Source: Straminergon stramineum (taxonomy: Eukaryota > Streptophyta > Bryopsida > Hypnales > Calliergonaceae). Taken from it: a stretch of DNA of 64,000 nt. The stretch is from assembly GCA_963920665.1 (NCBI GenBank), contig OY987271.1, positions 21,145,350-21,209,349 of the forward strand, read 5' to 3'. This document shows, piece by piece, positions 21,825-55,900 of this stretch (its first letter is position 1; every line of letters starts with the position of its first letter). The position numbers and the translations under genes were made by a program. Below the pieces are notes generated by a model that had not been told where the DNA came from, ran no database searches, and saw nothing but the letters and a program-made list of their open reading frames with translations.

Positions 21825-22640
21825 CTAAACTTCAACCTTAAGAATTGTGATGTCGCCTACAATAACAAAGTAGGCTCTTCTTTTGTCTATGGGATGCCAC
21901 ATTGGGTCCTCAATTTGTTGCATTGGTTGTAGTCCATCAAAGTCTTTGTCATTTTGCAATTGAACCATGCTTGGGGGCAATTGGGTAGAGTGTAGTGCCT
22001 TCCATCTACCTCTAACCTCTATTCGGCACAAAACTTTCCAACCACTTAGATGTGGGTCGTTGAAGAACACTTATTGGCAATGCCAAAAAAAATGCAAATG
22101 AGTCAAGGTGGACCTTCCCGTATATTTGATTGAAGTTTGACAAGTTGAAGTTGTAACTATCTCGTTGAATGCTTAGGAATTCAGCATCTCTTGTCCCCCT
22201 CATGCAATTGTATAGCAACATTGTAATGTAGTGGTTTCTATAATCCAAGACAAAAATTTCCTCAATGTATTTATATACTTGTGGGTGGCTTCTAGTGACA
22301 TGTTCACATGTGTTTAATGAAATTGGTGGGTGAAACATGCTATTGCACTTGAGTCATAGGTGATGAGACCACCTTTTAAGCTACAAACAAGAAGATGCAT
22401 TCCATGACAATACATTTGAAGAGGCAATGTCACATTCCACTATAGGGGACCTAGGGGTTGTATGTACTACATTCTGTTATCTTCCAATGGATGTCCAAAA
22501 TGTTCATCTTCCTTCACCATGAATGTCAACTACTCCCCTAAAGGTGGGAATTTTACTTAAGGTAGATAACAAACAACTCTTTGTGGTTGAGAGTGCCTTG
22601 ACTGCAAAGAAAAAGCTCCACGCCACTTCCATCTCTAGGT
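21825..22640 (-). pseudogene. Decayed 3' part of a CACTA transposase (DUF4216 region)
   Basis: Minus-strand frames read YKYIEEIFVLDYRNHYITML, then YNCMRGTRDAEFLSIQRDSY, KVHLDSFAFF and, after a frameshift near 22060-22080, FFNDPHLSGWKVLCRIEVRG. These align with the last exon of the transposase at 970-1822. Further upstream (22300-22640) are remnants such as MYCHGMHLLV with stops, again matching that exon. This is a fossil of the same gene and cannot be functional. Confidence 0.85.
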
Positions 22641-25687: not shown

Positions 25688-28600
25688 TTAGATACCATCC
25701 TCTCTTGCAGAGGTGCTCGTTTCAATGCCAATTAGATTCACATCACTTAAACTGGTGACTTGCCTCCCCCCAGAATTTGATGGAAGTCCCCTGTACCACG
25801 AACTATTGGGTTGAGAAACTCCGGACCCATCTGTCGATTCAGATGCTGGTACGTTATCAAAACCGAGTATACCGGTACGCATTCCACGGCCAGGTTGATC
25901 TGCACTGATATCAGATTCTGAACTGGCATCCCCTTGCAGAAGATTCACAACTCGGGACATGAGGGGTCGCATCTCGTCTGAATATTGCAAGCAAAGGAGA
26001 GTTGTACGTGTGTATCACTCTCTGAGCTTCTGCAATTTCATTGCCACGTAACTTGAGTTTTGGATCCACAAGATCCATGAGCTTGCCCTGTTGCTTCAAG
26101 TTCTGAACCTGCACATGTTTACACAAGAAAATATTTGTGGCACATTGATTTCTGCTCAGAATTTCTGGTTGACAATGCTATCTACGTTGAAGATGGTTTA
26201 TACAATTACAATTGTGAGAGAAATGATCCTAACTAGGGTTTGTAGATCGAACATAGCTATAGCCAATATCAACGTTATAGCAAAGCATTTATGTTCTAAG
26301 ACACGATTTTCAGCTACAACTTCAGCTACAACTTCAGCTAGACTTCTTATAGCAGGACGACTTTCAACTACTCTAGCTACTTCTTTGTTTGAAATAATAA
26401 GACACAGAATTTAATTTGCAAGTAGTTGTGTGTAGGATCATGTTAGGAATTGGATTTTGGAGCAGTGAAATATCCTCTACAGTCAAATGCAGTCAAGGAT
26501 ATCAAAAGAACTTACCCAAACCATGAGATATTCTTCAGGAGGTGGTGCCCCAATATTTATGTTTTTTCTTCCAGCGACTATCTCAAGACACAACACCCCG
26601 AAGCTGTAGACATCAGCTTTTTCACTCAGCTGACCTAACGTTGTATATTCAGGTGCCAAGTAACCTCTGCAAGTAAAAATAATTAGTTAGAAAGAACATG
26701 ATGCTCCTTAATTCAATCTGCTATACACCAATTACGTTAAGAACAAACATGTTAGAACTAAATATTGGCAAGAACTAAGTATACATAGATGTTTCTAGTT
26801 TGTCGAAAGTCCGAATATTCCTGAGTGAAATACAAATTTGAAATCCATCATATTCGCATTCACGTCAATGAAAAACGTAATGGATGCTCGAAAAATCCTA
26901 CCTTGTCCCAGCAACATGCTCAATGAGGATATGACTCTGTTCTTCGGGAAACATTAGGGGAAATCCAAAGTCAGCGATTTTTAGGTCTAGATTTTTGTCC
27001 AATAAAATGTTGCTTGCTTTTATGTCTCAATGGATGATGTTTGGATCCGCCAAGGCATGAAGATAGTGCAGGCCATGAGCAACTCCTAAGCAAATGTTCA
27101 TTTGCTTCGGCCAACTGACATGACCACCTTTTCCTTGTGCTCAATGTACAGAAATTACTGAATTAATTTGAAAATTAAAAAGACTAGATTTTGCAATAGG
27201 AGAAATTTTGAGAGAAAAATCATCACGAGAATGTACTGTAGGCCCAGGGCAAAATGGGGCGAGGAGATTTTGGATCATCTGACCAAGAAGAAACCAGTCA
27301 ACGTCGTGGTTGTCAGCAAAGTCGTAAACCAGAAACCTCTCTTTTCCCTTCACACAGCATCCTTTGAGTATAATGAGGTTCCGATGCCTCATTCCAATTA
27401 TCAGCACCATTTCTTTGAGAAACTCATCCATGCCTTGGTTCCTCTTGCTCATATAAAGCTGTTTCACAGCCACAGGAGTGCTGTTTGGTAGAACACCCTG
27501 CAGAAATTATTCAAACCATCAGTGTAGAAATGCTAAGTTTATCAAATCTTTTCATACCTTTAAACTGAACTTGGACAATAACTTGCAATAGAATCCCGAA
27601 GCTTCATTTCAAATTCATGCTAACCTTCAATTGAATAGTTCTCTTTTCATTTCAGAAAGCAAATAGGCACACATCTTGATATGTTCATATTCAATATGAA
27701 AACTTGGATCATTCACCACAGTTCTCTTGATCCTCAACACCTTGCCATTACTATCTGATACCACCACTAACTGAAATTGATGTTTTCACCTTATACAAAA
27801 CTCCGTGGCCTCCTTGACCCAACTTCATGCTTTGGTCGAAATTTCCGGTAGCATTTTGAAGCTCCCTGTAGCTGTATATGGTGGGCTTTACATCGTACTC
27901 GTCACATTCTGCACAACGTTAATCCACCATTTCTTTTTATCTAATGATACTTTTGTTGCACTAGAAGTGAAAGTGCCATTATTTGGTGGTATACGGCAAG
28001 AAATATGAAGCTTACTATGCCTCACTCCACTCAAGAGGTATCGTTGTTTGCGAGTGCTCCTGCGGTGAAACAGAGCTCCCAGAAGAAACACCAGAAATAC
28101 GGGAGGCAAAATTGCTGATAGAGCTATGGTAATGAATCGCTTCCGCATGTCGTCCATATTATCTGCGTCCGTCATAAACACATCCTCAATTAAAGTAACT
28201 GAAGAATATGATCGGCGGACTTCACAAGCTGTTCTTCAATAATTTCTTAGGTTTTAGATTACTGGCCGAGTTGAGTAAACCTGTGAGATGGTGAAACTGT
28301 TTCCCCAACTGAGAGATGTTTATTTTCGCACATTGTTGAATTCGCACTCACCTGGCATAAGTAAGAAACAAAGACAAAAGCATCTTGTGGCATCGTTCGC
28401 TTCAGCGTTCGAGCAATTCGGATTTCCTTCCAGTCTGCAAGGGACCATGAGTCCACAAGTCATCAGTTAGAAAGTAGATTCTAAGGATGATTTGGAGATA
28501 AGTAAGATAAGTTATAAATGAGCGTTGGTCTAAAGAAGCTAACCGGAATTGAATGGCATTTGGATCGATATCTGAAGGACTGTAGATTACATCGCCAATG

Positions 28601-32551: not shown

Positions 32552-33154
32552 ATGAGGCGGATGGGTCGAGTGCGAGGAAAGCGCAGCAACAAGAGCAGAG
32601 TGACGGGGCGTAAGCGCCGCGACAGGTGGAAGCAATTCACCGCCGCCAAGCACATTAACCCTGCTTGCGCTGAATTTTACCTCCAGCCATCGCTGAGAAT
32701 GTCTCATCGTAGTTTGGAGAATCAAGCACTTGATGAGCGGTGGAGTGCCGGCGATGATCGTGCAGATGCGGACGCTGTACAAGTGAAGAAAGAGACTGTG
32801 AATAACGTGATCGAAGCGGCTATGGCGAGAATGGACGACGGCTATGGAGATGATGAGGAAATGGGGGAGACGACGGTCATGACTTGCCCCGCATTTGAGC
32901 TTGCGAGTGGCCCAATTCTGGCTGGCGATGGCGCAGATATGATTCCTGCCATTGAAGAGGCATTCCACAGAGAGTTCGGGATCTATGAGAATGCCGTGGA
33001 AGGTTCAAACTTCTCTGAAACCCACTTCGCTAGAAGGTGGGGATCCGTTCTTAGCGAGGAAAGCTGGTCGGATGTTGAATTCTTGGAATCAGAGCTGGAG
33101 AGCTCCGAGGACGACGACTGGTGTATGGTGGTTGATGGAGAAGACGACGTGTGA
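32552..33154 (+). CDS. Unrecognised basic/acidic small protein, copy A (200 aa)
   Basis: I do not recognise this protein. The start at 32552 (MRRMGRVRGKRSNKSRVTGR) is chosen because copies B and C begin at the matching ATG with the same MRR.GRVRGK motif and the upstream GCGCAAGCYATCG is shared; an in-frame ATG 14 codons earlier is possible. Residues 1-30 are strongly basic, the middle is mixed, and the C-terminus is acidic. The segment IPAIEEAFHREFGIYENAVEGS is identical or nearly so in all three copies. The end holds three WxxV motifs at W163, W172 and W190 (WGSV, WSDV, WCMV). The last two follow acidic residues (EES, EDDD), as in ATG8-interacting motifs. No signal peptide or membrane segment is seen. 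It is a single exon. This copy is the most diverged of the three, especially in residues 20-110. Confidence 0.75.
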   Translation: MRRMGRVRGKRSNKSRVTGRKRRDRWKQFTAAKHINPACAEFYLQPSLRMSHRSLENQALDERWSAGDDRADADAVQVKKETVNNVIEAAMARMDDGYGDDEEMGETTVMTCPAFELASGPILAGDGADMIPAIEEAFHREFGIYENAVEGSNFSETHFARRWGSVLSEESWSDVEFLESELESSEDDDWCMVVDGEDDV

Positions 33155-34777
33155 ATTGGTGGTTCCCAAGATCAAAACACTCGCCCATTTGCTGTGAGAC
33201 TTTAAATTATTGTAAGCATTCTTCCACCGAGCTCCTGAAAGCTAGCGACTTGGAGTATGTCATCTGCACAACAACGGAACAGCTAAAATTCGCTCGCGGT
33301 CCTCTCTCACCGAGCTTTGCAATAAACAAAGATTCAGATCGAGGGGAGGCCATCCCTCTCCCAGTCCTTCGATTCTTGCGACGTGCACAGCGAAGGATTA
33401 AAGTTTGTTCAATCAGCGCCAAATCTTCGGACGTGAATCATTTGCAGCAATCAAAGCTTTCAGAACCAGTCTTGAATGTCCGCAACGCAATCCACTCCAT
33501 GCGGCCGCCTCGTGAGGTTCTAAGCACATTCCAGCGCACAGACGTGGCATTTACCAAACAGTCTAGCAATTAGACTGCAAGAATAATCACAATATGGTTG
33601 CCCAAGGTGATCTGTACAGAGTAGCGTACGTAGTGAGAGTTGTACATGAATGTTGATTCTAAGCCCAGGTACCGAATGTCGCTTCTTCACTCTGCATATA
33701 TGAGGGAAAACCCCATTAGTGCAAGAAAACATTTGGAAATAAACAAAAAAAAAACCAGATCTGGTGACCGCAAAGGGCAGTGTCCCGACTCCCGAGTAGA
33801 ATGCGGTAAATTGTGCTGAAGATTTCGTTGGATAACTTGATTAACTGAGGGTGACTCACCGTTACCCTTCACTGTAAACTGAACTCATTTAGGTAATCAA
33901 ATAAGGATACGATTGCAATGTGTGAATTCAAACTCCTAAACAACTCACTTGGGGAAATAGAAGCAGGTCTGTATGGTAAACATAACGTCAATGCAGGAGA
34001 GTTTCGCCATCATGGCATGTTTCGATTGGTTAAGGAGAGGTAGATTATGAGTAATGATGTTCAGTACTTGCCTTGTGCAAATTTTCGACAAGGTGTAAGG
34101 TAAAACAGCCCATTGCGGTCAGAATTAGGAGTTCATACTCATGCCATGGTTGAAATTTTTTCATTTTTTTCCAACATAAACACAAGTTTGAGAAACAGTA
34201 AGAGCATTTGAAATTATATTTTTTTGACAAAGTATGAATTTACTATGAATTTTTGAAGTGTTCAGCCCATCATGGCCCATAAGAGTCTGTAGACTACCCC
34301 AGAACCAACAAAATTTGTATCCATCATGCTCATCTTACACCCCTAAAGCAGTCACAACAATTTCTAATGTGAAAGGCCTATAAAGTCACTTCCTACAATG
34401 AAATTACACTGAAAAGTTAGAAGTTCCTAATGCAGTCACTAATCACTCCATTACTGTCAGGTAAGACATTGATTGTGGTCCAAATCTCATTTACTAATAA
34501 AACCCATGATGGGGGCTGGAAAAAACCACAATGGGGGGACTTGCTAGGTGACCACTATGGGTCATCTGACCACAATGGGCTGATTTACCTTACATGAAGT
34601 AAAAATTTCATTGGTCTTGTAGTGAGAGAAATCTCTACTACCATCAACTAGTATTAACTTAGTGAGTGTGGATCCACATAACATAATCTAAATGCAAGAG
34701 ATTTTTGCCATTGTTGCATATTTTGATTAGTTAAGCAATCAAAGAAGTTAAACGGCTCAACTCTCCTACATGAACAT

Positions 34778-34932
34778 TAATATTATGTCTGGTAATTGCA
34801 AAGTAGGCCAAGTCATCAAAAATAATCCTTGGTTAGTAACAACCTTGCTGCTTGCGGCTCAGTAGGTTCCAACTAATGATTATTTTTGATAACTTGGCCT
34901 ACTTTACAATTACCTAGTCCATAATTTGAATT
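34778..34932. mobile_element. Foldback (MITE-like) element of about 155 bp
   Basis: The left arm, containing GGTAATTGCAAAGTAGGCCA and ATCAAAAATAATC, is repeated inverted on the right (GATTATTTTTGAT, TGGCCTACTTTACAATTACC). The arms are nearly complete, leaving a loop of under 20 bases around 34850. Such hairpins are typical of small non-autonomous DNA transposons. No target-site duplication could be fixed with certainty. Confidence 0.7.
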
Positions 34933-37900
34933 GTACATTCTATACTAGGACCGAACTGTAACCATCAGAAAGTTATTAGAGAATTACCTCTTGCAAGAAC
35001 AGATGATCATACTTACTAAACCTTGGTTGCTAAAACCAAAATTCAAGTGACATGACTGCAAGCACTACCAGGCTTGGATCATTCATCAAATTTGCTTCTC
35101 CTTAGATTGCTCTAATTGATGTTCTAATGAGCCTGCATTGTTCTACAAGAGTATGTACTAGACAACTAGGCAAGGGGATTAGAATTAGGGTCTCAGTTGG
35201 ATATTGGGCATGGTCATCTCCTCCAAATTAGAGTAAGACCTTCAAATCTTGGAAATCTATGACTCTCTCAAAGAATGTGAGGAGAGCGGAGTAATAATAC
35301 TAATCACACTCCATCTTTCCAACCACATTGTGTCATGTGGCAATGAAAGAGCTAAGGAAGGATAGTAGATCAAATTAACCTCTAAGGTATGTGCATCCTA
35401 ATCATCACTACCCAAACGTGACACCAACATTTGAATAAAAAACAACACTAAAATTTGATGACTAAGATATTGATGACACAAGATGTTCACAATTAGAACA
35501 TGAGAGCTTGGAAGAGCCTTATGCTGATTTTTCGAACATCACCAAACAACACTTTGAAATTTTGAAACTTATTCATACAACGTCCAAATAGTGCATGCTA
35601 GAGTGAGTTGAAATTCTCTCACTTACCAACATTTAAGATCCAACTAAAATGATTTATGTTTGTAACACTCAATTGGTGTTAGCGAGGATTAGGTGCTCTT
35701 ACCATACCTATAATGAAACCCTAAATCCGAAACTTACAATGAGCTGCTCCTTACCCTCAGCAGCGACCCAATACTAGCCTTGACAAAAGGGATGAAAGGA
35801 GCTGAAATTGCCTTGGATTCATGTCTCCCAGAGGTCAAATCCTCCACCATGGTTTCAAACCCCACCACTGTACATTTCCAAATGAGCAACACAAAGCGGG
35901 ATGTGAATTTTGGGGCGTGATGCTGCATTCGGTAAGGAGCAGAATGGTCTGAGCTTTCTACCCATTTAGCAACACCTCTTTTTGAGTCATTGGGCCTTGC
36001 TTGAAAGACATTAGGAAAAGAATGGGGTCTAGACTCTAGAGAAGGTTGCCTCCCTTTCAGAAACTGTGACCAATAGTGAACAATAGATTACTGGTGTAAC
36101 TTAGATTTGACAGATTCAGCAGTCGTGTGGAAGCCCCAGTCTTCTTCTAATGGCATTAAAGAACTTTTGAGCCCATAGTACACAACAGCAACACAAGACA
36201 AAAAAAAAAGTAACAGCACGTACAGTATATCACACAATATGGGATCATATGAACATAAAAATGTGTGATGGATCACTGTTGTTCTAGTGACCTTTTCAAT
36301 TTTTCTATGGGAGTTTCTACTCTTACCACACTAAGCTCCTTGGTATGTAGGAGATGATGGAGATAGCTTCTAGGATGTGAAGACATTACTATCTTTAGTG
36401 CATATTTTTTGTATCATCCTTATCTTGTTCTCTTCAAACACTATTAATACAAGTCTGTTTTGACCATTCTCAACTTCAAGTTTATAACAATGATAATCTT
36501 TTCAAGATATTTGCTTGCATGTCCTATATTCCTTTTGAAGATTCTGTTTTAGAGCATTTGGGGATATTTATTTTACCATTTTGTAAGTATGATAATCTCA
36601 TTATTATACTTCTATTGTTATATCACTATTGATTGTACTAGACATAAATATATATTGGTCTTATGGATTGATGAAGAAGTACAAGGACAAGTCTATCATG
36701 TCTCCAATTGGAGTTTTGACAATTCTATTAACTCATATCAAAGGTTCGTCTATTGGAAATACAACAAATGAAGATTGTTTTTGATGTCAATGCATTGATA
36801 ATTGTTTTGTCTTAGTGTACCATGCATCATTGTATAAATAAGAACTTCTCTTTGAAAGAAGCTAAGGACATTTTCAATCGAGAGGCATTTGAAATGGTAG
36901 AATACAAGGAATATTGTGTTAGTATGATAAAAAAGGCAATTGTAATATTAAGAGATGAGTTCTATTGAATCTATGTAATTGATGGAAAAGGTGTTTCATA
37001 AGAAACAACTAGAAATGAAGGTAAGCAAAAAAGATGAGCAAAAAGAAATAGTAAAATTCCCAGTTTATGATGCATGTGATTTGAATCTTATACTTGTAAT
37101 AAAGAAGAAGAAACTTGGTGGAGAATATCCGTTATTTTGATATTTTTTAAGAACACAGCTTAGAATGTAAGTGGTCAAATCAAAATGTTGCTTCAATACA
37201 TATCCTTGTTCTCATGGCATATTATTATGACTTTTTGTTTGTTTGAAATGGTAGATATACAAAATTGATCATTATAATCTTACTTTCTACTTTTGCTTCT
37301 AAATTTCCAATTTTAGTTTAGAATATTTCAAGCTTCCTTCATATGTGCAATTAAAGTTTCTACTCTGGTGGTCCATAAATCAAGCTCAAAGGTTCTGACA
37401 TCTCTAACATGATTGTACTAAGAATCTTGTCGATGTGTTGAAATGAATCAATTCAAAAGAACTTTGTAACTTCTAGAAGTTTCCAACAATGACAATTCTA
37501 GCTTGAAATTGATCTCAATGATATACATGTACAATTTGTCTTTAGACTACTATATATTGGACTAACCTAAAGAGAAGATCTACCACCAATCAATATGCCA
37601 CTTGAGTTATAACAACTGATTCACACAAATTTGAGGTGCAATTGAAAGTGTTCATCCTTTGCACATGGGGAGATCCCATCTCCATGATGAAAAGCTTGTG
37701 TCATATTGCAGATCACATGCACATTGTATGTTGCTCCATGTCACAAGAAAAGTCTCTCCATCACTAGCTCCAAAATCACTTCACATTAAAAACACCATAT
37801 CTCACAATCCTACGATGATGCCATAGCACATGAAAAACAATGTGGAAGAAACCAAATTCCTCAATCAACCAAAGCTATCCATATCAATCACACCCGTCCA

Positions 37901-37989
37901 TAAAAACAACATATGACATTACATTTTGTGGTTAAAGAGCTATAATTGTTGCTCTCACTACCAGTAGTAGAAACATGGTCCGTGAAACT

Positions 37990-38064
37990 GAGCTTTAAGA
38001 CTCATGGACTTGCTCTAATTAGTCATAATATGATGAATTAGACCAAGTATGAGTCTTAAAGCTT
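37990..38064. repeat. Inverted repeat (hairpin) just beyond the stop of the membrane-protein gene
   Basis: The arms GCTTTAAGACTCATGGACTT (37992-38011) and its near inverse AAGTATGAGTCTTAAAGC (38045-38062) pair around a short AT-rich loop. The hairpin starts four bases past the stop codon (38070-38068) on the minus strand, so it would lie in the 3' UTR. Confidence 0.75.
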
Positions 38065-38067
38065 AAT

Positions 38068-40102
38068 CTATGCTGACCTTGTTCTGCTGATATCTTTGAA
38101 TGCGGGAGCTATAAAGCAAGCCATTAAGCATTCGTGCTCAAGAGGTCCTGGCACCCCAACCGTTTCAGGCCCTCCCCAAGTTTGACAAAACGCCACCACT
38201 GCAAACAATCCTGCTCTCATTGCCAATTCCACCTTTCTACTCTGTGGGCGTTCCGAATCTAGATTGTCAATCAAATGCAACACAGCTCGACGGGCTCCTT
38301 CCAAGCTAGCCATACCCAAACCAGCAGCCTTGGACACATCTTCTAAAGACGAGGATGGTTTAGATGGGTTGATATCTCCAACCAATACTTGTCGTACATC
38401 TGAAAGAGCTGTATGCCAAACTTCAGATTGTTCCAATGTAGCAGCGTGCCACATTGCTCTGCTGATGTTGGGCGATAACCACGAAGAGTCAACCATGCCA
38501 TCTTTGAAAGCTTTAAATGTCCACTTCCAAACATTCAACAAACTTTGAGGCTCATCAATTTCACCAGCCAAAGCCAAAGTAGCGGCCTGACCTAGTAGTT
38601 GGGAGAAGAGAACTGCTTCGAGCGCAGTCAATGAATAACAGGTCACGGGAGCAGATGTTGGCTCGCTTGGTGCTTCCAAACTACTTGCAATTGCAGTAGT
38701 GTCTGAAATGGAGGGATCCATAATTCTCTCCACCATGGACATTTCCTTTGGATATCTTCTCAGCAAATCTTGCAATGTTTGTAAGTTTGTGATACAATCC
38801 AATAATTGCTCATCGAGATGGCCACTCCCTTTGTGTTTCTTGCGCACTACATTCGACAAATCATGGAGATATTTCCCCCCACTTGCAAGTATAGCCATGG
38901 GCATAACGATGCACATAGCGATGATCCAACGGACAGCCTCAACCGATCGCTTCATCGTGTTGAAGTTCGACAACCTTCGCACCGTTCCCAATGCTAGCCA
39001 GTCCCGTCACAACAGCTTCAGCAATGCTACCCAGAATCAGATCCGTGATCACAAGGCAGGTCTGCATTACTGGACGAAGACCAAATTTTCTTAACCTACA
39101 CATTTCAGAGGATTGTTTATATACTTCGTCCGAAAGGTGGAACGCACGTCGACAGGTGAACACGTGGTAAAATAGCTCAAGACACCAAACCGACAAGCAC
39201 AAACATGCGGGCAAAGTTCTCTTCCCTTCCCTCCTCCATTCCCATTCCATGAGGGTTATGATGCTGAGAGCCAAGGTCACTTCACTCATTGCTAAATAGG
39301 AGTAATGGGCACTCAGAGTCGCCATGGAACCAAGCTTGGCCTTGAACTGGCGCTTGATGCTAAAGGCCACGGCGGGAATCACCGCGCTAGGCGTACTTCT
39401 AAAACTAACAGCTATGTCACAGCAATCTCGACCGATAGTGAATCCCCCTGGAATAGCACGTCGAGGCTTTCCCTCCAGTATTGATCTCCAGAAGAAGACA
39501 TTGTCTTCTAAGATTATGCCATTGGTGACCGATGTGACCTCAACTCGTTCCAGGTACGGGCTCCACTCTTTCTCCAACCAGGTCGCAACCGCTGCCAGAT
39601 GTTCACACTGTGTCTTGGAATCATCTTTGGTCTCGTCCCAGCTACTACAGTGCCATCCATGCAGGAAATGAAGTTTCATACCTTTCAGAACCACAACAGC
39701 TTGAAACAGGATCTGTTGTGCAGTCGATGAGGCTACAGATGTCCTCCTATACATAAGCCCCAACTGCAACCACGTGGAAAGCATCCACAGGACCCGCTTC
39801 CACGCCAGAGCATCTGTGTTGGGGTCATAGTTATCTGTCAATATGCTTGTGCACAAGCACCACAGCAACTGCTGCACACCAGTGTCATCCTGCGAAGCAA
39901 GTTCAGAGGCAGTAGTCGATGACAAAAACAAGGACAAACCAGCCAGACCAATCAAGGTTCTCAGGGAATACGAAGCTCTCTTCAAAACGCAGATATGCAC
40001 GAATGAGCTTACGAAAGCGAGGGCAACTGCAACGATCTGCCACGAAGGGATCTGCACAATGAAAGGTGCCAAAACGCCCAGTGGAACATGTCCTGCAGCC
40101 AT
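38068..40102 (-). CDS. Unrecognised multi-pass membrane protein, split into two overlapping frames
   Basis: Two long minus-strand frames overlap: 40102-38939 (387 codons from the first ATG, MAAGHVPLGVLAPF) and 38991-38068 (307 codons). They differ by one frame. The second continues where the first stops and holds further hydrophobic segments, so I read them as one ~680-aa gene with a frameshift in 38939-38991, or a sequencing error; two separate proteins cannot be excluded. Hydrophobic segments include IVAVALAFVSSFVHICVL and LIGLAGLSLFLS (N-terminus), YLAMSEVTLALSIITL and LPACLCLSVWCLELFYHVF (middle), CLVITDLILGSIAEAVV, and IIAMCIVMPMAILASG (start of the second frame). The C-terminal part is soluble and Trp/Leu-rich. 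No known domain is recognised. There is no good intron that would join the frames. A hairpin lies right after the stop. Confidence 0.6.
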
Positions 40103-40969
40103 AAGTATGCCCAATTGTAGCAGAGGGTCAGATTTTTTGTTTCAAACTTTTGATACCTGTCGTTTGCTCGTAAGCTTGATCCAACACTCTAAAGCAGGAA
40201 AACTATGCATGAAAGATGACCAGAAGTCATACTTTCATTGACAATTGGTGCAAGAACGATTTGTAGCTTTCAATCCCCCAACTGCTCCCCCAGACTGGAA
40301 TCAATTGGACTCCCCCTGACTGGAAATAATTGGACTCCCCCAGAACTGGAATCAGTTGGACTCCAGTAGAATAAGACTCTCTTCCCCCCGACTCTAATAT
40401 AATATTACTCCTTTCCCCCAATTGCGAAGAATTTACCAAGGCAATGCCGCAGTAGCAACCACATGCTGGAGCAGTGCCTCCGGTTCTCCCGGGCTGAGTA
40501 GTCAGGCCTAGCCGCCTAATAAAACGGCGTCCAATGGAGGCACGAGATCCTGCTCTGGAATCTGCTTTGCTCTGGTGCAGCTCGGCTCGATGCTGCAACG
40601 AACGTCGAGATGAGCCTCAAGCGGTGCAGGAGCGAGAGATGCCACTTAACATTCTTGAGGTTCATAGCACGGGGTCCCTTTCCTTCCCATGTCTTTCAGT
40701 GTAAACAATTATGAATGCATGGTAGCCCGGCGTTGTGAGCCACTGAAGAAGAATCATTTCCACTGTGACACGACAAGAAGCTAGGCTACGATTAGCTCTG
40801 ACACAGTCGCACTGGCACACATTTCGAGTAAAAGACCAACTCAAACCTTTTGACTGAGGACTGGCAGACTGTCGGTAACTCTTCTTCTTCTTTTTTAAAC
40901 AAATGAAACGAAATTTCCTTGCAAAGAAGAGAAAAACAAAACCGCCAGCCGCATCGGTAACTCTTCCAA
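40103..40969. other. Intergenic spacer and probable 5' region of the membrane-protein gene
   Basis: No additional gene is supported. At 40285-40365 there are three imperfect copies of a ~30-bp unit built on CCCCAGACTGGAATCAATTG (variants TGACTGGAAATAATTGG and AGAACTGGAATCAGTTGG). The motif AAACAAATGAAACGAAA at 40898-40914 resembles a phrase repeated at 60500, 61500 and 61950. Confidence 0.55.
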
Positions 40970-41388
40970 ATTCTCAAATGACTCAGATACAGACTGTAAT
41001 GACATTTACTCCCGGAATCCAGCCCGGTGACCAGTCATTTCGGTCACAGAAAGTCGTCCACAACGTCACTCACAAGCCCCAATCTTGCTGCCCAAGCACA
41101 CATCATTTGCAACTCACTATAAATCAAACCCCCCAATTTCCATCGAAATCAGAGTTGGTAGGAAAGTAGCCCTAGATCGACTTGAAGCATTCGCTTAATT
41201 TCGACATATACTTAGCCCGGATTCTCGTTGTGGCTTCATCAATACTTAGTTCACATTCTGGATTGTTGATTAGAGGATTGAAGTGGTCGCAATTTCGCTT
41301 GAGGGTTCGAAGACTGAAGTGCTGGTAAGCTTGCGTAATTTGGTAATTTGAGAACTGCAGAACAAGTAGAGAAGCGCAAGCTATCGCC

Positions 41389-42024
41389 ATGAGGCGGGAG
41401 GGTCGCGTGCGAGGAAAGCCCACCAGCAAGAGCCGCGTCACTGGGCGTTGCAGATGCCGTGACTGCCGCGACTACCCCGCCGATAAGTCTCGCTCCAAGC
41501 GCATGGGCAGGTACAAACGCCTCGCAGTCGACGTGCTCAACAACCCTTCTCTCGCTGAATTCCACCTCCAGCCGTCACTGAAAAAACTTCACAGTGCTCC
41601 TCTTCGTGACATAATGGATTGTGAAATTGATGAACAATTTCGTCATGCCGACGTGAGGATCTACTTTGCCACTGTGAATGGCGCGATCAACGCTGCCTTT
41701 TCGAGAATGCACGGAGGTTTGGGGTTTAATCGGGAGATGGAGGAGACGGCGGCCATGGCATTCGAGCTTGCGAGTGGCACAATTGTGACTGGCGATGGCG
41801 CCGAAGTAATTCCTGCCATTGAAGAGGCATTCCACAGAGAGTTCGGGATCTATGAGAATGCCGTGGAAGGTTCCGACTTCTCTGTGACTCGCTTCGCTAG
41901 AAGGTGGGGATCTGTTCTTAGCGAGGAAAGCTGGTCCGATGTTGAGCTCTTGAAATCCAGCTCGCAGGAGGACGACTGGACTATGGTGGACGACGGTGAC
42001 GTGAGAAGTGTTGACCCTTCTTGA
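41389..42024 (+). CDS. Unrecognised basic/acidic small protein, copy B (211 aa)
   Basis: The start is MRREGRVRGKPTSKSRVTGR, preceded by GCGCAAGCTATCGCC, which is also found before copy C. The N-terminus is basic with a small Cys cluster (CRCRDCRD, residues 24-31) and a second basic run (KSRSKRMGRYKR). The middle is neutral. A conserved core IPAIEEAFHREFGIYENAVE precedes an acidic C-terminus with WGSV (W173), WSDV (W182) and WTMV (W197). The last two follow acidic residues (EES, EDD) as in LIR motifs; that function is inference. From about codon 100 to the stop the nucleotide sequence looks identical to copy C by eye, including third positions. It is a single exon with no signal peptide. Compared with copy C it lacks five residues in the Cys-rich segment. 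The family is unknown to me. Confidence 0.8.
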   Translation: MRREGRVRGKPTSKSRVTGRCRCRDCRDYPADKSRSKRMGRYKRLAVDVLNNPSLAEFHLQPSLKKLHSAPLRDIMDCEIDEQFRHADVRIYFATVNGAINAAFSRMHGGLGFNREMEETAAMAFELASGTIVTGDGAEVIPAIEEAFHREFGIYENAVEGSDFSVTRFARRWGSVLSEESWSDVELLKSSSQEDDWTMVDDGDVRSVDPS

Positions 42025-44155
42025 CAAATGCTTGATCATTTTTTCGATCACGAGCAGAGTTTCGTCAGTTTTGTTTGGAGTCCGCAATCTGCACAACAAT
42101 CCCGCATCGTCTACTCTTTGCGGAACTCATTCAGACCAATATGGATGATCGATTCTTGCTGCAACATGGATTGGCCGGTTCGTACGATTGAGGGCCCGGA
42201 ACCCTAAACTTAAGTGACAGTTCACGATTCGCACCCCCGAGATTCTTCTGTTTGCTAATTTCCAAATCCAACTTCGCGCGATTACAAATGAGTCCAAGAA
42301 TCTCTCTAAAATTACAAGACCCCTTGTAGAAACTTTGCCCAGATCACCTTCCTCCTCAGAACACAAAGATTAGGGTTTCTAACGTGCTGTAGACTCCAGC
42401 ATGCTGCAGGGTTTCTTACTTCAAGCCCGATGCCTTGAAGACCTTCAGAGATGAAGACCGCCTATCTCAACTTCAAGAAGCTCTTCAAGATCCTCATACA
42501 TCGCAAATCCTAGGGGGTAGAGTGCAAAGCATTTCTTATAAGGTTGAAAAGGGTGTCACTGATGCTTAGTTTGTATAAAGTAGGGTCCGCTATGCTTTGG
42601 ATAGGGCTTTGTAGAATTGCTCAGAACCTATATATTGTTCTAAATCAAAACTCTAGTTGTAAAGCATATCCACCTCCACTAGGCCCGTGCACACAAGGCT
42701 TATAGGGCCCATGCGATGTCACATATGAGGGCCACACTTGTTAGCGTGCAACAACCCTCACGAAATCTGAAACTTCATGCCCTCACGGAATTCTCACTGT
42801 GCCACTTGGTCTGATTAATATTCTTTAAACCATGGAATACAAGATCTACCTCTAAACTAGGACTTCAATGACTTTGCACCAACAAAACCCTATTTTCACC
42901 CCCACCATCCACCTTGGTTTTATCTAGAGGTAGTATGCAAGGATATTGGGTGATGTTAAAAAAGGGTAGGTGGCAGGATAAGCACTTGATGCTCAAGCGT
43001 TGTGGTGAGAGGTTCAGAGGTAGGGGCCACCCTATGAATGTTCCAACCTTCACTAAGCCCTCACTTGTCCTCATGTTCACAACCCTACTGCTTGAGAAGT
43101 GTTTGCTACACAACCTTATTATACTAGACTAGTCCTAGGGCCAGATGGAATTTCATTGAATGGATGTATTTCATAACATATTTTACACAATACTCAATTG
43201 AATTCAATCCATTCCTTATGGATATACGATTTGGCACCAATTGAGGTGACATGTACCAAATAAAACAATTAGAACTTGCAATTATATGCTCTTGTGATCT
43301 GCAAAGACTATAATGCAAAACTAAATAATTCTATTGCTTAGAACTTCTATTTCTTTGTGGGTACTCCATTCCACTATGTTTCCATTTTTAGACACCAATA
43401 TACCCACTTGGAAATTGTCTCTGATCTTAATGGTGATATTACAAGAATTGCAAACATCTTCTACAATTGCCACTAAGAGCACCGGCACCCAAGCGCACTG
43501 CCTTAGTGACTCTTCATAGGCACTCACAAGAATCCTTGCCCCACCATTACTCTCCCAACAAAAACTTGCAAAATGGGCTCTTTAAAAATAATGTGGCCAT
43601 TCAACTATTTAGGGCCTTTCAATTGTTGATTCAAATCCGAGGATTCAAGAGAACCTAGTCAATGAAGACAATTGGTAAAAAGGAACAATAGTCATTACCA
43701 CATGGCCATTGAAAGAAGAGGAACAATGTGAGAATTGGAACGATACCATGAAGCAACTTTGCAGTGCAACCTCCACACTATAGGGAGGTGTGGAATTGTC
43801 AAACGGCCTCCACCCATGACCCCTAACGGATTGTCCCAAACCCTTCTAGTGTGTTATTTGTGGTGCACCTTGATGGTGAAGCTCTAATTAACACAAATGT
43901 GTGGAGCTCGCCATAATATATAGTTTTAGACCTACCTATTACTATGTGTATGATGAATTGAGTTTACAATGACTATATTGACTCCTAATTAGTTATGTGG
44001 TAGGTGGTTAGGTAGGTTTATCCTAAAAGGCAAGTATTTAGCAAGACTAAGTTTGAATAAATATCTACCATATAGAGATCAACAAGTACCACCAAGAATA
44101 GTTTTTGTTATTTCCATTGATATTGGTTGCATGATCCAACCATTGAAGATATATT
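42025..44155. other. 3' flank of copy B within the duplicated block, no further gene
   Basis: A plant telo-box-like TTAGGGTTT is at 42372-42380. At 43330-43500 a minus-strand frame (CNSCNITIKIRDNFQVGILV) matches a similar frame in block 2 at 48040-48150 (CNSCNITIEIRNSSQVGTLV). Both are short, interrupted and unrecognised, and may be remains of a gene that was part of the duplicated unit. Confidence 0.45.
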
Positions 44156-46232
44156 GGGCCACTTGAAAGTATAGCCTTGTTGTAGAAATAACATCCCTCG
44201 CTACTCCTTTAGTCAGCCTTTGTTTTTCCAATCTTAGCTTTGTATTTGGGTGGCTCCACAAATTTGATTGAGGCTACTAAATTTGAAAATTTTGAATTAC
44301 AACTTGTTACTTAGTTCAGAAAAGAATTAGTACCCATAGCGGCACAACTCAACAAGTTTTTTTCATAGCAATGCTCTATTCTCTCAATATTTAAGGTATT
44401 TGCTCCTAATTGGGACTTGTTTATAAAATTGATCTTTACATAGCCTTTCCTAAAATGTGAAGCCTTTATTCATAAGAGCCTACAATTGATTTTGGGCACA
44501 TAATTTTAGCACTTTGAAAATTCATATTTTCTTCATGTGGTGTTCAAAAAAGGATTCTAAAGGATCCAAATCCTCCCTTTGACACCCAATAGTACCCAAC
44601 AAAAACCTTATTGATAGTTGAAGTATATGAACTATGTATAGATGCTTTTGAGGACAATTTTAGATGTTGTTAGACTTGAGTCCATTTCTACCATTTACAA
44701 GATCTAAGTAATGTAGCCTCATCTAATTGCACCAATTTTTTTGTTCCACCAGAGTTGTTTTTGGACCATCTTCACCTAAAACTACTATAAGCTCCCAAGA
44801 ACAATCAATGGAAGTTCAAGTATTTTTGAGCTTCAAGAATGATTGTTTAAATGGTGCTTAATGGCATGAGTAAATCCCCTATGTGTTCAACTTTGAAAAT
44901 TGATTTCATTGGATATTGTATAAGTGCTAGAAAATTGGGGTTGTTTTCTCTCAAAGAAGCTATTCAATCTTAAAAAATCATCATTCAGATCGCCCACTTA
45001 TTAGGGACAAAAAAGTGGTGTTTGGGGATGCTTTTAGCTCAAAAAATGTTGTGTCCCAAACCACGACCCTAGCTAATTAGTTTGACTCAACCAATTTTTT
45101 TTGTTAATGCATTGGTAGAGCAATTTACACCCTAAAATGCATGTAGGTAAGGAAAAAATGGATTTGATCATTCACATGTGTATGTTCATCCACAACATTA
45201 TCTATTATTTGTACTTTCATCCAAATGTTGACAAATCTAATATTTATAAGGGGAAGGATTTGGCTATTTCATCCATTTTGTCACCCATTTTTCTTAGTCT
45301 TAACCTCGAAAGGACAAGACCTATTACCAAGATACTTTGTCAAAAATGATTTGATTTTTGGATCAATTGGTGCATTCTTCATCTCTACAATAATCTAGAA
45401 AGTCATCTATTGACCACTTTTTAGCCTATGAAGTATTTTAGGGTTAACCATGTAAGGATGTTGCAAACTTAAAAGGTAAAAAGTTTGATGGATGAATTTT
45501 TGTTAGCTATAGAAACAAAAAATGCACATATTGGTCTAGTAATTGGAGTATTTTGGTGACTACCTTTCATGGTCACTTCTTTCCAAAGTTAAAGTATCCA
45601 AACCTGTTCCCAAACAAGGAAAAATACTAGCAAAAATCCGACTTTGACTAAGGTAGAAGCACCTAAATGCGACACTTATTTTGGATCTCTTGATATGGAG
45701 GGTGCGTACAAGAAAAAATTATGTGCGTGTGTTAGGAAATGATTTAGGAAACCAACAAAATTGGTTTCGTATTTTTCGGAGCTTGTAGGAACATTATATA
45801 AATTTTTGAAAAGAACTTTGTAGATGTACCTATTCTGGACACTAGACTAATACCAAAGTGGGCACAAAAACACCCATAAGCGACACACTCTAAACTTGGA
45901 TCAAGTGTGGGTGATTGGCTACTTCTTGGAAGAATGACAACTTCTTGGAACCCCACATGTCTACTTTAGAACCCCACTTGTCTACTTTAGAACCCCACTT
46001 GTCTACTTTGCATCCACAAGCACTTGGATTTAGGTTGTTTTTTAGGTGTCTGTAAACGACTGGTGTTACATTGGGGCGCTTCTACCTTAATCTGGCTAGT
46101 CTGTATAGTCCAACTCCGAATTGAATCACGAATCTTGCATTCCAAGTTTGCCAAACGGAGACCAGCTTCCAGTCTTCAAACCCACAATCCTCACAGCCAT
46201 TGTCTGTTGGTTGGAGTCAACTAGCGAAAAAT
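44156..46232. other. Spacer between the two duplicated blocks
   Basis: No gene is supported. At 45305-45390 is a sequence that occurs inverted at 52113-52200. At 45948-46010 a 21-bp unit (GAACCCCACTTGTCTACTTT) is repeated three times in tandem. Confidence 0.55.
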
Positions 46233-48425
46233 CACTATTCTCAAATGAATCAGATGCAGACAACGTCACTGTTGAGAAAGCTCCAATCTTGTTGCCCAAG
46301 AAACTTCATTTGCAAGTCATCTTACTCACTGTAAACCAACCCCCCAATTTCCATCGAAATCGGTACAGTAGCGTAGAAAAATAGACCCAAGACTTGAAGC
46401 AGTTTCTTAGCTTGATCTATGCCGAGTTCATTCTCGCATGTAAATTAGAAGGCTGAAGTGTTCGCATTCTCGCTTGTTGATTCGAAGATTGAAGTGGTCG
46501 CAATTTCGCTTGAGGGTTTGAAGATTAAAGTGTTCGTAAGCTTGCGTAATTTGGTAATTTGAGAACTGCAGAACAAGTAGAGAAGCGCAAGCTATCGCCA
46601 TGAGGCGGGAGGGTCGCGTGCGAGGAAAGCCCACCAGCAAGAGCCGCGTCACTGGGCGTTGCAGGTCGGGCAAGACGCGATGCCGCAGCTGCCGCGACCA
46701 CCCCGCCGATAAGTCTCGCTCCAAGCGCATGGGCAGGTACAAACGCCTCGCAGTCGACGTGCTCAACAACCCTTCTCTCGCTGAATTCCGCCTCCAGCCG
46801 TCACTGAAAAAACTTCACAGTGCTCCTCTTCGTGACATAATGGGTCTTGAAATTGATGAACAATTTCGTCATGCCGACGTGAGGATCTACTTTGCCACTG
46901 TGAACGGCGCGATCAACGCTGCCTTTTCGAGAATGCACGGAGGTTTGGGGTTTAATCGGGAGATGGAGGAGACGGCGGCCATGGCATTCGAGCTTGCGAG
47001 TGGCACAATTGTGACTGGCGATGGCGCCGAAGTAATTCCTGCCATTGAAGAGGCATTCCACAGAGAGTTCGGGATCTATGAGAATGCCGTGGAAGGTTCC
47101 GACTTCTCTGTGACTCGCTTCGCTAGAAGGTGGGGATCTGTTCTTAGCGAGGAAAGCTGGTCCGATGTTGAGCTCTTGAAATCCAGCTCGCAGGAGGACG
47201 ACTGGACTATGGTGGACGACGGTGACGTGAGAAGTGTTGACCCTTCTTGACAAATGCTTGATCTTTTTTTCGATCACGAGCAGAGTTTCGTCAGTTTTGT
47301 TTGGAGTCCGCAATCTGCACAACAATCCCGCATCGTCTACTCTTTGCGGAACTCTTCGCGGAATTCTTTGCAATTACTGGCGAGGAGGCATGGAGTCTAT
47401 ATCTATATTCAGGGCCTGGAACCCTAAAACCCGAGGGATGTCACAGGTTACGATTTGCACCCCCGAAATTCAGCTTTGCGCGATTACGTATGAGTCCCAG
47501 AATCTCTTTCAAAGTACAAGAGCCCTTGTAGGAACTTTGGCCTGATCACCTTCTTTCTCAGAACACGAGGCTTCTATTGTGCCACTCATCATTCCAGCAC
47601 TCTTAGTTCAAGCCTGATGCTTGTAGACCTTCACAGATGAAGACCTCCAAATTTTACTTAAGGATGCTCTTCAAGACCCAAATAAATCACGAATCCTACG
47701 AAGCAGCGTGAGTAGAGTTTGAGATAATGTTGAAAAAAAATGGCACTGACACGTAGTTTTAATGAATTAGGTTCAAAACTCTAGTTATAAAGCATATCCA
47801 CTGTTTGGGTGTAAGTTGCACAACCTCATTTGCTTTGTACTCGACAAATATAATTCATAATACATCGTATGCAATGCTCATTCTAGATCAATCCACTCCA
47901 TCCACTCCACAAGGATGTAGACTCTGGCAGCAATTGAGGTGACATGTGCCAAACAAACAGTTAGAGCCTGCAATTATTGGCTCTTGTGATCTGCAAAGAC
48001 TGTTAATGCAGGACTAGATAATTCTGCTGCTTTGAACTTTTGTTTCCTCGTGGGTAATATACTCCATTTCACTGTGTTTCCATTCTCGGACACCAATGTA
48101 CCCACTTGGGAACTGTTTCTTATCTCGATGGTGATATTGCAAGAATTGCAAGCAACTTCTCTTTCTACAACTGCCACTGATACAGATGTGAGTGAAGCTT
48201 GCCACTAAATATTTCTTAGACCTACCTACCACCATGTGTGATGAATTGAGTGCGGTAACTCTGTTGAACCCTGATTAGTGATGTGGTAGGTGGTTAAGTT
48301 AGGTTTACTCTGAAAGGCAGGTAGTTAGCAAGACTAAGCTTCACAAATAAACAGCACAAAGAACAGTTTCTGTTGTTTCCACTGACATTGCTTGCATGTG
48401 CTGCACCACCATTGAAGCTCAGTCA
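46233..48425. repeat. Segmental duplication block 2 (contains gene copy C)
   Basis: This is the partner of the block at 40970-44155, in the same orientation, with the shared landmarks listed there. It ends about 160 bp before the start codon of the Mpv17-family gene. In the 5' leader, a ~35-bp unit with GAAGTG.TCGCA..TTCGCTTG appears about three times (46445-46547) against two in block 1. Confidence 0.85.
46600..47250 (+). CDS. Unrecognised basic/acidic small protein, copy C (216 aa)
   Basis: This is the same protein as copy B except for a five-residue insertion in the Cys-rich segment (CRSGKTRCRSCRD against CRCRDCRD) and a few substitutions before residue 80. The basic N-terminus (MRREGRVRGK), the core AIEEAFHREFGIYENAVEG and the acidic C-terminus with WGSV, WSDV and WTMV (W178, W187, W202) are all kept. 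The C-terminal coding half and the first ~100 bases of 3' flank look identical to copy B at the nucleotide level, whereas more distant flanks differ clearly. It is a single exon with no targeting signal. Intact frames in three copies argue that the protein is used. The function is unknown; an ATG8-binding role is only a motif-based suggestion. Confidence 0.8.
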   Translation: MRREGRVRGKPTSKSRVTGRCRSGKTRCRSCRDHPADKSRSKRMGRYKRLAVDVLNNPSLAEFRLQPSLKKLHSAPLRDIMGLEIDEQFRHADVRIYFATVNGAINAAFSRMHGGLGFNREMEETAAMAFELASGTIVTGDGAEVIPAIEEAFHREFGIYENAVEGSDFSVTRFARRWGSVLSEESWSDVELLKSSSQEDDWTMVDDGDVRSVDPS

Positions 48426-52937: not shown

Positions 52938-55900
52938 CTAGTGAGCCTCCAGCTTGGGCCTTTTCAGAGTAGGTTCAGGCTCTGCAGGTGATGGCCGAGT
53001 CCTTCCTTGTGATTGATGACTCTGAGCAGAAGACTCGGGTGTTGTAGCAACCTGATATCAATTTCAAAAACGAAGAAAGGGCAACCATTAGACACAAAAC
53101 ATGTGCTCCATTGAAATGTGACACAGGGTATTGCTAAGAAAACGAGTGTATGAACCAAGTTTTTAATTCACGAATATGCCAGGAACACCAGGACTAAACC
53201 CGTCGTGCTCCAGCTGAATATGCTTTTAAAAGCCGATTGCCAATTATAATAACTTCAAAACGTGTTCCTCTTGTTCCAGAATGCAGGGTATGATTTCTTC
53301 TTTCTATTGGTGCGTTTTGTTACTTTAAACCTTCCTAATTGATTTCTTTCAACTCCTGAAGCTATGAAAGCAGCCACATTTGACTATTAGGGCAAGCAAA
53401 TATGGGTCAACTGCTGCAATTGAATCCACCAGACTTTTAGAATTGTGAGTGAAGAAAGAAGAATTGTGACTGTTTACCTTGACTGAAGTGTCAGCAGCAG
53501 CGACTGTGGCATTCTGACCAAGATCAATTTGGACAGAAATATTTGCTTTACTCAGGTCCACTCCAGAGCTCTGCAACGCTCGTGTCAAAGTGTCCAGTAA
53601 CCTGCCAATTTGAGAAAAATAACAGTCTCAGCACAAGCATAAACCTCGCAGAGGTCTAGATTTGAAATACCATCATACTACACCCACAAAACACTGGTTA
53701 CAGGCCACTCACCCATGAGATATAGACACAGGGTACATATTACAATTGCGATAAGGTGTACAAATCTAGACACCGTCGCAGGACTTGCAATCAGTTTCAA
53801 GCACACGGAATTAGGGTTTAAGGGTTTAGGGTTTAAGTCTTACCCTTGGGAGTATACAGAAGACACATTGATGACCCCTCCTTGGATCCGAGGCAAAGCT
53901 TGCGCAGGTGAAGCAGCAGATCCATCTCCAGGGGTTCCGTGCTCATTTTGTTGCGACTGCAGATGCCTCGCTTGATTCTCTTGCGACAGCGGTGATTGTC
54001 TAGGAGCACTAGCACTTGGAGCTTGGGCTCCATCTATTCTACCCGCAAACGTTGCAGCGGATCTCTGAGGCTCAGCCTTGGATTGGTGGGTAGTCATTTG
54101 GTCAGCTTGGCTAGCAAGCGAGAATCGCGGCCTCACTTCAAACTGGTGATCTGGAGTGGCAGCTCGCACATAGCCCGGGTTGTACCCGTTTTCAAGGGAG
54201 CTCACAGTGTCTGGATCACTCAACTTCTCTTTCGCTGGAGAGTTGGAAGCAGGTGCTCCTCGACCGTAATCCTGCATCACAAAAGAGCCGCCATTAGAAT
54301 CACAAACTAATTTCTGTCAATTTTGTAGAACATCAGATCGATCTTGACTTGATGGTCACTTCATAGCTGCTACTATAATATCAAGCTAAAGGCAAAGACA
54401 CTGACACCAGACTAACATTAAAGCCTTTAAGAGCGAAGAAGTCCACATTTCGCCTCATGTTCTGGATTGTTCAAATAACTATTTTTTTGAACCCACACAT
54501 GCAATGTTCTTCACTCAATAAACTGATGTAAAGCTTTTCCCCGTTTGAACTATACTTTCCACAGTACGATCAGTCAAAGTGTTCAATTAAAAATCATGAA
54601 TTCTTCCTCACAAAGGGTAAGGCTACCAGCATTTGCACTACACCAACACTAACTTAAAAATAAAACTCAACATCACGAGCAAGGGCTTCTGCTGTGGCGT
54701 GTACCTTCGAGGGCACAATGGGCAAGGCATAGGGCAACGGAATGGCCTGCTGCAGAGACTGCACTCCCACTGGCAACGGTTGTGCAGTCAATGCAGTCGC
54801 ATTCTCTTTCTCCCCTTCTAATGAAGAAACGCAACTGTGAATGCTGCAAGCAGGTCGGCTGGAGCCTTGCTGCGTGTTCACGCCGACAGTCGACCGAGCT
54901 TCCGACACCGGTGCTCCTGCTTGTTCGGTGGAACGGGGAGCTGCGTTCACTTCCGTCGCAGGCTTAATGTGTACGGGACTCACTCCTGAACCGAAGTCCT
55001 TGGCAAATACTAGTGCATTGATCTGTGAGATCTCTTCGCCTGAGCCTGTCGCCCCTCGCTGCAAAATAGAGTACATCATGCGTACACATGAGGCATTGAT
55101 AGTGAAAATATTGAAGTGGACAACTTAGGGCTTCACTTTAACTGAGGGTTTGAAAATGGTCCGAATAGATCGAAAAATGATAGAATTCGATTGAATAAGA
55201 TCACTCTATATCAGTGAAGTACATGGCATGTGCTGGTTTAAAAATTCACAGATAGTCTCCATATGATTTACTGGACACTGCTAAGAAGAGAATGAGACCT
55301 AATTTGGGCGTTCCTGGGTTAAGAGAAAGTGATGGTTTGAACATTCGCTCACCTTGCAGAGATCCCACACCATGGACTTCAGCCTTTCCTGATGCCGTCC
55401 TTGCTCCACATTTTCAAACTTGCGAACCTTATCCTGAAGAACTTGAATATACTCAATAACCTGCAAGCAGATACAGTTCGTTAAGGAGACTTCGCTTACG
55501 GTGAGAGAATCTTTGGACTTCTGGTGGATGTGTGAACTGGCACTGTAATCAGAACGAGCCTGAAAAGTCGGTAATGACGGCATCGTATTGGTATAAATTC
55601 AGGATATTAAATAGGATAATCTATTACATGGACGGAAGGAAAACAGACCTCTCATAAAATCCCACAAACAAGGACTAGAAACTACAGACAGTATGATCCA
55701 TTGCATTCGTGAGTTCATTAATTACCTCAAGTAAGAAGGATGCTTTATCTCGCTTCTGATCACTGTGAGGAACTAGGTCTCGCAGCATTTGAAACCTGTC
55801 ATTAATTTTACTCCGCCTCCGCTGCTCCGTGGCGGAATGCTTGGACCTTGGCGTACACGCCCTCAAATCGGCATTCTTGGAATCCACTCTCTGTGCAGCA

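What the first reader, a model, noticed from the sequence alone, without database searches (positions are those of the whole stretch)
32552..47250. Three-copy unrecognised gene family with conserved WxxV motifs at an acidic C-terminus
Copies A (32552-33154), B (41389-42024) and C (46600-47250) encode 200-216 aa proteins with a basic N-terminus, a conserved core and three WxxV motifs (WGSV, WSDV, WTMV/WCMV) kept in all copies. The last two are preceded by acidic residues, the classic context of ATG8-interacting motifs. I know of no family with this arrangement; a clade-restricted adaptor, for example in selective autophagy, is a testable guess.
Basis: partly seen in the sequence, partly recalled or inferred. 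Interest (0 to 1): 0.78.

Follow-up and report, generated by a model that had tools for sequence, protein, structure and literature searches.

The report
Moss protein family with acidic tryptophan tail
The window holds three copies of an unnamed, probably mostly unstructured moss-type protein whose best-kept parts are two small tryptophan-valine motifs in an acidic tail; they look like docking sites for another protein, but which protein they dock to is not known.

Summary
In detail: A, B and C are open single-exon ORFs of 200, 211 and 216 aa at the stated places, basic at the start and acidic at the end. Three protein searches gave 24 relatives; the three with a species name are mosses. No Pfam family or credible PDB relative was found. 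In the 24 of 27 sequences with a complete C-terminus, the second and third tryptophans are the two best-kept columns (24 of 24 each) and the last motif is W-x-x-V in 24 of 24; WGSV is kept in 9 of 24. Structure models are weak, consistent with disorder. Autophagy is only partly supported: the strict LIR pattern fits 0 of 24, the relaxed one fits the last motif in 4 of 24. Acidic aromatic-x-x-valine strings also dock TFIIE, XPC, UVSSA, Rad4 and RPB6 on the PH domain of TFIIH p62, and the unvarying valine fits that rule slightly better. I favour a nuclear docking protein of that type, at low confidence. B and C share a homogenised block, probably gene conversion.

The parts
32552..33154 (+). copy A, 200 aa; an A-type paralogue, N-terminal Cys motif absent
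   Evidence: ORF; 88% identical over 115 aa to relative P0017, which is 68% identical to B and C; motif scan
33038..33049 (+). copy A WGSV (not kept in the wider family)
   Evidence: coordinates by arithmetic
33065..33076 (+). copy A motif W1, WSDV
   Evidence: coordinates by arithmetic
33119..33130 (+). copy A motif W2, WCMV
   Evidence: coordinates by arithmetic
41389..42024 (+). copy B, 211 aa
   Evidence: ORF; tree with C at 100/99 support
41905..41916 (+). copy B WGSV (not kept in the wider family)
   Evidence: coordinates by arithmetic
41932..41943 (+). copy B motif W1, WSDV
   Evidence: coordinates by arithmetic
41977..41988 (+). copy B motif W2, WTMV
   Evidence: coordinates by arithmetic
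46600..47250 (+). copy C, 216 aa, the only one of the three with the complete N-terminal Cys/His motif
   Evidence: ORF; motif scan
46660..46701 (+). copy C N-terminal C-x6-C-x2-C-x2-H in a basic stretch (possible small metal site, inferred)
   Evidence: a Cys3-His pattern is in 12 of the 23 sequences (of 27) that have an N-terminus, incl. the four deepest, P0019 and P0021-P0023
47131..47142 (+). copy C WGSV (not kept in the wider family)
   Evidence: coordinates by arithmetic
47158..47169 (+). copy C motif W1, WSDV
   Evidence: W in 24 of 24; V 18, I 5, G 1 at +3
47203..47214 (+). copy C motif W2, WTMV
   Evidence: W in 24 of 24; V in 24 of 24 at +3
41249..42125 (.). block homogenised with copy C (partner about 46460-47351)
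   Evidence: 130 of 140, 627 of 636 and 100 of 101 bases identical inside; 115 of 170 and 292 of 413 in the flanks just outside

Best explanation
A family of small, probably largely disordered proteins of mosses. A basic N-terminal stretch, perhaps ancestrally with a Cys3-His motif, would bring the protein to the nucleus or to nucleic acid (inferred). A variable middle with two predicted helices follows. The acidic C-terminal tail carries two motifs, typically EESWSDVE and DDWSMVD, their tryptophans 14 to 22 residues apart. Each would dock by putting W and the residue three further on (V, at W1 sometimes I) into two pockets of a partner with a basic surface. Shown: the two motifs, their conservation and acidic context, and weak structure models. 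Inferred: docking, nuclear site and partner. The best-fitting partner is the PH domain of the TFIIH subunit p62 (an 'acidic string'), or a similar transcription/repair cofactor; the protein would then recruit that machinery.
For: The two tryptophans are the two best-kept columns of the family (24 of 24 each; 13 clusters at 70% identity); W2 has V at +3 in 24 of 24, W1 has V 18, I 5, G 1. The varying W1-W2 spacing, 14-22, suits two separate short motifs. Structure models are weak: mean pLDDT 49.8 for copy C and 58.9 for P0023, the tail at block means of about 49-63. Published rule: an acidic disordered string puts an aromatic in pocket 1 and a V three residues on in pocket 2: XPC W133/V136 and Rad4 F95/V98 (passages of PMC10345426), UVSSA F408/V411 and TFIIE-alpha F387/V390 (passages of PMC11266705), RPB6 F13/V16, where F13A and V16A both weaken binding (passages of PMC8754651). 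The second residue after the aromatic, a partner of a PH lysine in some yeast ligands, is D in 22 and E in 1 of 24 at W1.
Against: No binding, localisation or expression data. Acidic W-x-x-V is short and also fits a loose LIR. Of the ligands cited here only XPC and fission yeast Rhp41 use W; UVSSA, TFIIE-alpha, Rad4 and RPB6 use F and Elf1 Y. Rhp41 has L, not V, and p53, DP1 and Elf1 lack the valine, so V does not define the TFIIH rule. At W2 the second residue after W is M 16, V 4, I 3, L 1, not acidic. One search for plant TFIIH acidic strings listed 2 papers, neither on such a plant protein by title or abstract; PMC11266705 only hypothesises a role for plant Elf1 tails (passage).
Confidence: 0.33

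Rival explanations
1. Selective-autophagy adaptor: W1 and W2 are ATG8-interacting motifs (AIM/LIR) and the N-terminal part binds a cargo.
For: W-x-x-[ILV] in acidic context in 24 of 24 at W2 and 23 of 24 at W1. Copies B and C have DDWTMV, which passes the relaxed pattern and is close to SQSTM1 DDWTHL and STBD1 EEWEMV. PMC5119064 treats NEK9 RGWHTI and DSWCLL, with one mismatch at the place after W, as good candidates (passage); WCMV of copy A has the same C. Physcomitrium has the core autophagy machinery (start of abstract of PMC9807217).
Against: Strict LIR pattern 0 of 24; relaxed pattern at W2 4 of 24 and at W1 0 of 24. S follows W at W1 in 23 of 24 and at W2 in 14 of 24, but in 0 of 27 verified LIRs; V at +3 occurs in 7 of those 27 (my count). 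No Pfam domain that could bind cargo. The LIR score matrix and membrane anchors were not tested.
Confidence: 0.2
2. General acidic activation or chromatin/histone-binding tail: acidic residues with W and V make fuzzy contacts with Mediator, histone H2A-H2B or similar, not one specific pocket.
For: Basic N-terminus and acidic C-terminus with aromatic residues; weak structure models. The general rule for such tails is recalled, not from a call.
Against: Fuzzy tails should tolerate swaps of W, F and L (recalled); here W is fixed in 24 of 24 at both sites and V in 24 of 24 at W2.
Confidence: 0.25
3. The tail is a SUMO-interacting motif.
For: P0008, P0012 and P0016 have VVDLD or IVDVD overlapping W2.
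Against: The pattern is found in 3 of the 23 sequences scanned and in none of the window's copies (P0013, P0015, P0017 and P0024 were not scanned).
Confidence: 0.03

Closest known systems
Acidic strings of TFIIH p62/Tfb1 PH-domain ligands (XPC, UVSSA, TFIIE-alpha, Rad4, RPB6)
   Same: Acidic, probably disordered tail; aromatic with V at +3
   Different: No sequence homology found; two strings per protein; W at both; hydrophobic residue at +2 in the last one; binding untested
ATG8-interacting motifs (LIR/AIM), e.g. SQSTM1 DDWTHL, STBD1 EEWEMV
   Same: W-x-x-V with acidic residues before W
   Different: S after W in most members; V fixed at +3 in W2; strict pattern in 0 of 24; binding untested
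Hypothetical proteins M758_10G007100 (Ceratodon purpureus, P0008) and A9SG34 (Physcomitrium patens, P0009)
   Same: Homologues with the same layout
   Different: 47% and 44% identical to copy C; also without a known function

Membership tests
TFIIH p62 PH acidic string | aromatic residue in an acidic stretch | tested here: met
   net acidity within 6 residues is +3 to +5 at W1 (23 of 24, P0018 not scored) and +4 to +8 at W2 (24 of 24)
TFIIH p62 PH acidic string | valine three residues after the aromatic (five ligands cited; absent in Rhp41, p53, DP1, Elf1) | tested here: met
   W2 24 of 24 V; W1 18 of 24 V, 5 I, 1 G
TFIIH p62 PH acidic string | stretch disordered when free | tested here: inconclusive
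   tail pLDDT about 49-63; consistent with disorder, but the alignments were shallow (21 and 22 rows)
TFIIH p62 PH acidic string | binds the p62/Tfb1 PH domain | not testable with these tools
   no complex prediction or assay available
ATG8-interacting motif (LIR/AIM) | [WFY]xx[ILV] | tested here: met
   W2 24 of 24; W1 23 of 24
[quoted passage not shown]
   0 of 24 C-terminally complete sequences; of the three set aside, P0011 matches at W1
ATG8-interacting motif (LIR/AIM) | relaxed xLIR pattern | tested here: inconclusive
   W2 in 4 of 24 (P0001, P0024, copies B and C), W1 in 0 of 24; P0005 at the shifted first W
ATG8-interacting motif (LIR/AIM) | binds ATG8 | not testable with these tools
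   no assay or complex prediction
SUMO-interacting motif | hydrophobic core followed by acidic residues | tested here: not met
   3 of 23 sequences scanned, none of the window's copies
AT-hook protein | Pfam AT-hook match at E up to 1 | tested here: not met
   none in the 21 members of A4 nor in P0019 and P0021-P0023 (P0011, P0013, P0024 not scanned); RG[KR]P in 16 of 23, RGRP seen in P0010; AT-hook core recalled; so short a model can be missed
Any curated protein family (Pfam) | score above cut-off | tested here: not met
   P0011, P0013 and P0024 were not scanned, their precomputed Pfam column is empty

The most novel reading that the evidence does not exclude
A moss-specific nuclear adaptor with two TFIIH-docking strings in one tail, which recruits TFIIH for transcription or DNA repair in plants exposed to UV and drying.
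Probability: 0.1. Interest if true: 0.65.

Novelty: new variant of a known kind. Interest (0 to 1): 0.38.

Why it matters
Lineage-specific disordered proteins are mostly passed over. Here the best-kept part is reduced to two tetrapeptides, which makes the partner question directly testable with a 45-residue peptide against two candidates (p62 PH domain, ATG8). Physcomitrium, where knock-outs are routine (recalled), has a homologue.

Tried and rejected
Zinc finger as a family-wide feature: a Cys3-His pattern is in 12 of 23 sequences; copies A and B do not match it, so it is at best ancestral. SUMO motif: 3 of 23. AT-hook: no Pfam match. KaiB (Pfam E 0.034, score below cut-off, 1 of 21 members) and weak PDB matches (seven up to E 10, best 0.029, one, E 1.6) rejected as chance; searches of the PDB with the tail alone and with P0023 gave nothing. 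Antisense ORFs over B and C rejected as coding because relatives are found in the sense frame. Bacterial/archaeal and viral collections: 11 and 94 pattern matches, none a relative. Fold search was not run, because the models are too weak. Vascular-plant relatives: none named, but those searches need shared 5-residue words and 21 of 24 hits have no species, so a distant relative is not excluded.

In print: searches are listings with starts of abstracts; (two identifiers and two sequence words) found 0 papers. One search was uninformative. Papers read: PMC10345426, PMC11266705 and PMC8754651 passages only; PMC5119064 passages and one section (Table 1); PMC4731421 part 1 of 2 of the whole text (background only).

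Full report
What is there. All have a basic first part and an acidic end (for A and C; B by its 98% identity to C). Their GC is 0.54-0.56 against 0.405 for the whole window. Tblastn with the 24 relatives found no fourth copy in the window at E up to 0.01.

Relatives. Three protein searches gave 24 distinct proteins, P0001-P0024. Three carry species names, all mosses: P0008 and P0011 Ceratodon purpureus, P0009 Physcomitrium patens; the other 21 have none. No Pfam family passes its cut-off in those scanned, no PDB match is credible, and no relative was confirmed in the bacterial/archaeal or viral collections. P0009 is on 385 contigs, the longest 2518 bases, which I read as transcript assemblies (inference). 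A tree of 21 rows (18 relatives and the three copies; P0011, P0013, P0015, P0017, P0020 and P0024 left out as short or damaged) puts P0019 and P0021-P0023 on one side of a long, well-supported branch (100/100) and everything else on the other. B and C join P0001 (100/99); A is outside that set, its exact place unresolved. P0017, not in the tree, is 88% identical to A and 68% to B and C. So A-type and B/C-type paralogues are probably older than the split between the window's species and the sources of P0001 and P0017 (inference).

What is conserved. Of 27 sequences (24 relatives, three copies), P0011, P0013 and P0020 were set aside because their C-terminus departs from the rest: P0011 and P0013 keep W1 but lack W2, and P0020 lacks both (its end looks like a frame-shifted reading of the same region, by eye). 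In the remaining 24 (13 clusters at 70% identity) the two best-kept columns are the tryptophans of W1 and W2, 24 of 24 each. W2 has V at +3 in 24 of 24; W1 has V in 18, I in 5 and G in 1. The residue after W is S in 23 of 24 and L in 1 at W1, and S in 14, T in 4, F in 3, C in 2 and A in 1 of 24 at W2. The W1-W2 distance varies from 14 to 22. The first motif, WGSV, is kept in 9 of 24 and is not acidic in context; 5 of 24 have a W shifted by a place or so (GW.TL) that is in acidic context, and 10 of 24 have neither (hand count).

Structure. AlphaFold2 on copy C (21 rows) gave mean pLDDT 49.8 and pTM 0.19. On the deep relative P0023 (22 rows) it gave 58.9 and 0.26, with two helices, 120-150 and 172-190, where block means reach 76-84; the tail stays at 49-63. 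This fits a mostly disordered protein with two helices and a docking tail, but shallow alignments also lower confidence.

Selection and history. A against C: dN 0.267, dS 0.499 (NG86), falling to 0.120 and 0.333 in the last 90 aligned codons. B against C: dN 0.014, dS 0.021 (10 differences in 211 codons), with none in the last 90 codons. Constraint is modest overall and strongest at the C-terminus. B and C agree at 627 of 636 compared coding bases plus 15 gap columns, at 100 of 101 bases just after and 130 of 140 just before, but only at 115 of 170 and 292 of 413 in the flanks beyond. Low synonymous divergence inside more diverged flanks points to gene conversion (inference).

How it may work. 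Short, fixed W-x-x-V in probable acidic disorder is a docking-motif signature. Two established rules fit. For LIR/AIM, the strict pattern matches 0 of 24 and the relaxed one matches W2 in 4 of 24, including B and C (patterns from PMC5119064). Counting the first block of its Table 1, S follows the aromatic in 0 of 27 verified motifs and V is at +3 in 7 of 27; the relaxed pattern was derived from these same 27, and the paper itself keeps one-mismatch peptides as candidates. For TFIIH p62 PH acidic strings, the aromatic with V at +3 is reported for XPC, Rad4, UVSSA, TFIIE-alpha and RPB6, though Rhp41 has L, and p53, DP1 and Elf1 lack the V. On pattern alone the second rule fits slightly better; with a basic N-terminus that would suit a nuclear protein, I favour it at about one in three. 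Neither has been tested for binding.

Verdict. A real, conserved, uncharacterised moss-type family with an interesting tail; the autophagy guess is possible but not favoured. Ordinary in kind (a disordered protein with docking motifs), unassigned in function.

Noticed in passing
41249-42125 and about 46460-47351: Copies B and C share a block at 93-99% identity per segment inside flanks at about 68-71%: probable gene conversion confined to the gene and its edges.
   Followed up: partly
970-5312 (-): Pieces of a TNP2-type transposon: Transposase_21 (2.3e-22), DUF4218 (2.4e-33), and DUF4216 below its cut-off (7.1e-5); a diverged relative of 1079-1587 lies at 21934-22436 (67%).
   Followed up: partly
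7162-7848: Tandem array, copies 87-94% identical at offsets of about 95-98 bases and multiples.
   Followed up: no
25064-25469 and 34511-34098: Inverted copies of about 415 bases, 78% identical, probably a dispersed repeat.
   Followed up: no
27141-27506 (-): Protein kinase fragment (8.1e-9).
   Followed up: no
38068-40114 (-): Two long ORFs of 307 and 391 aa with overlapping ends, perhaps one gene with an intron, without a Pfam match above cut-off.
   Followed up: no
55675-55971 (-): bHLH domain exon (2.5e-13).
   Followed up: no
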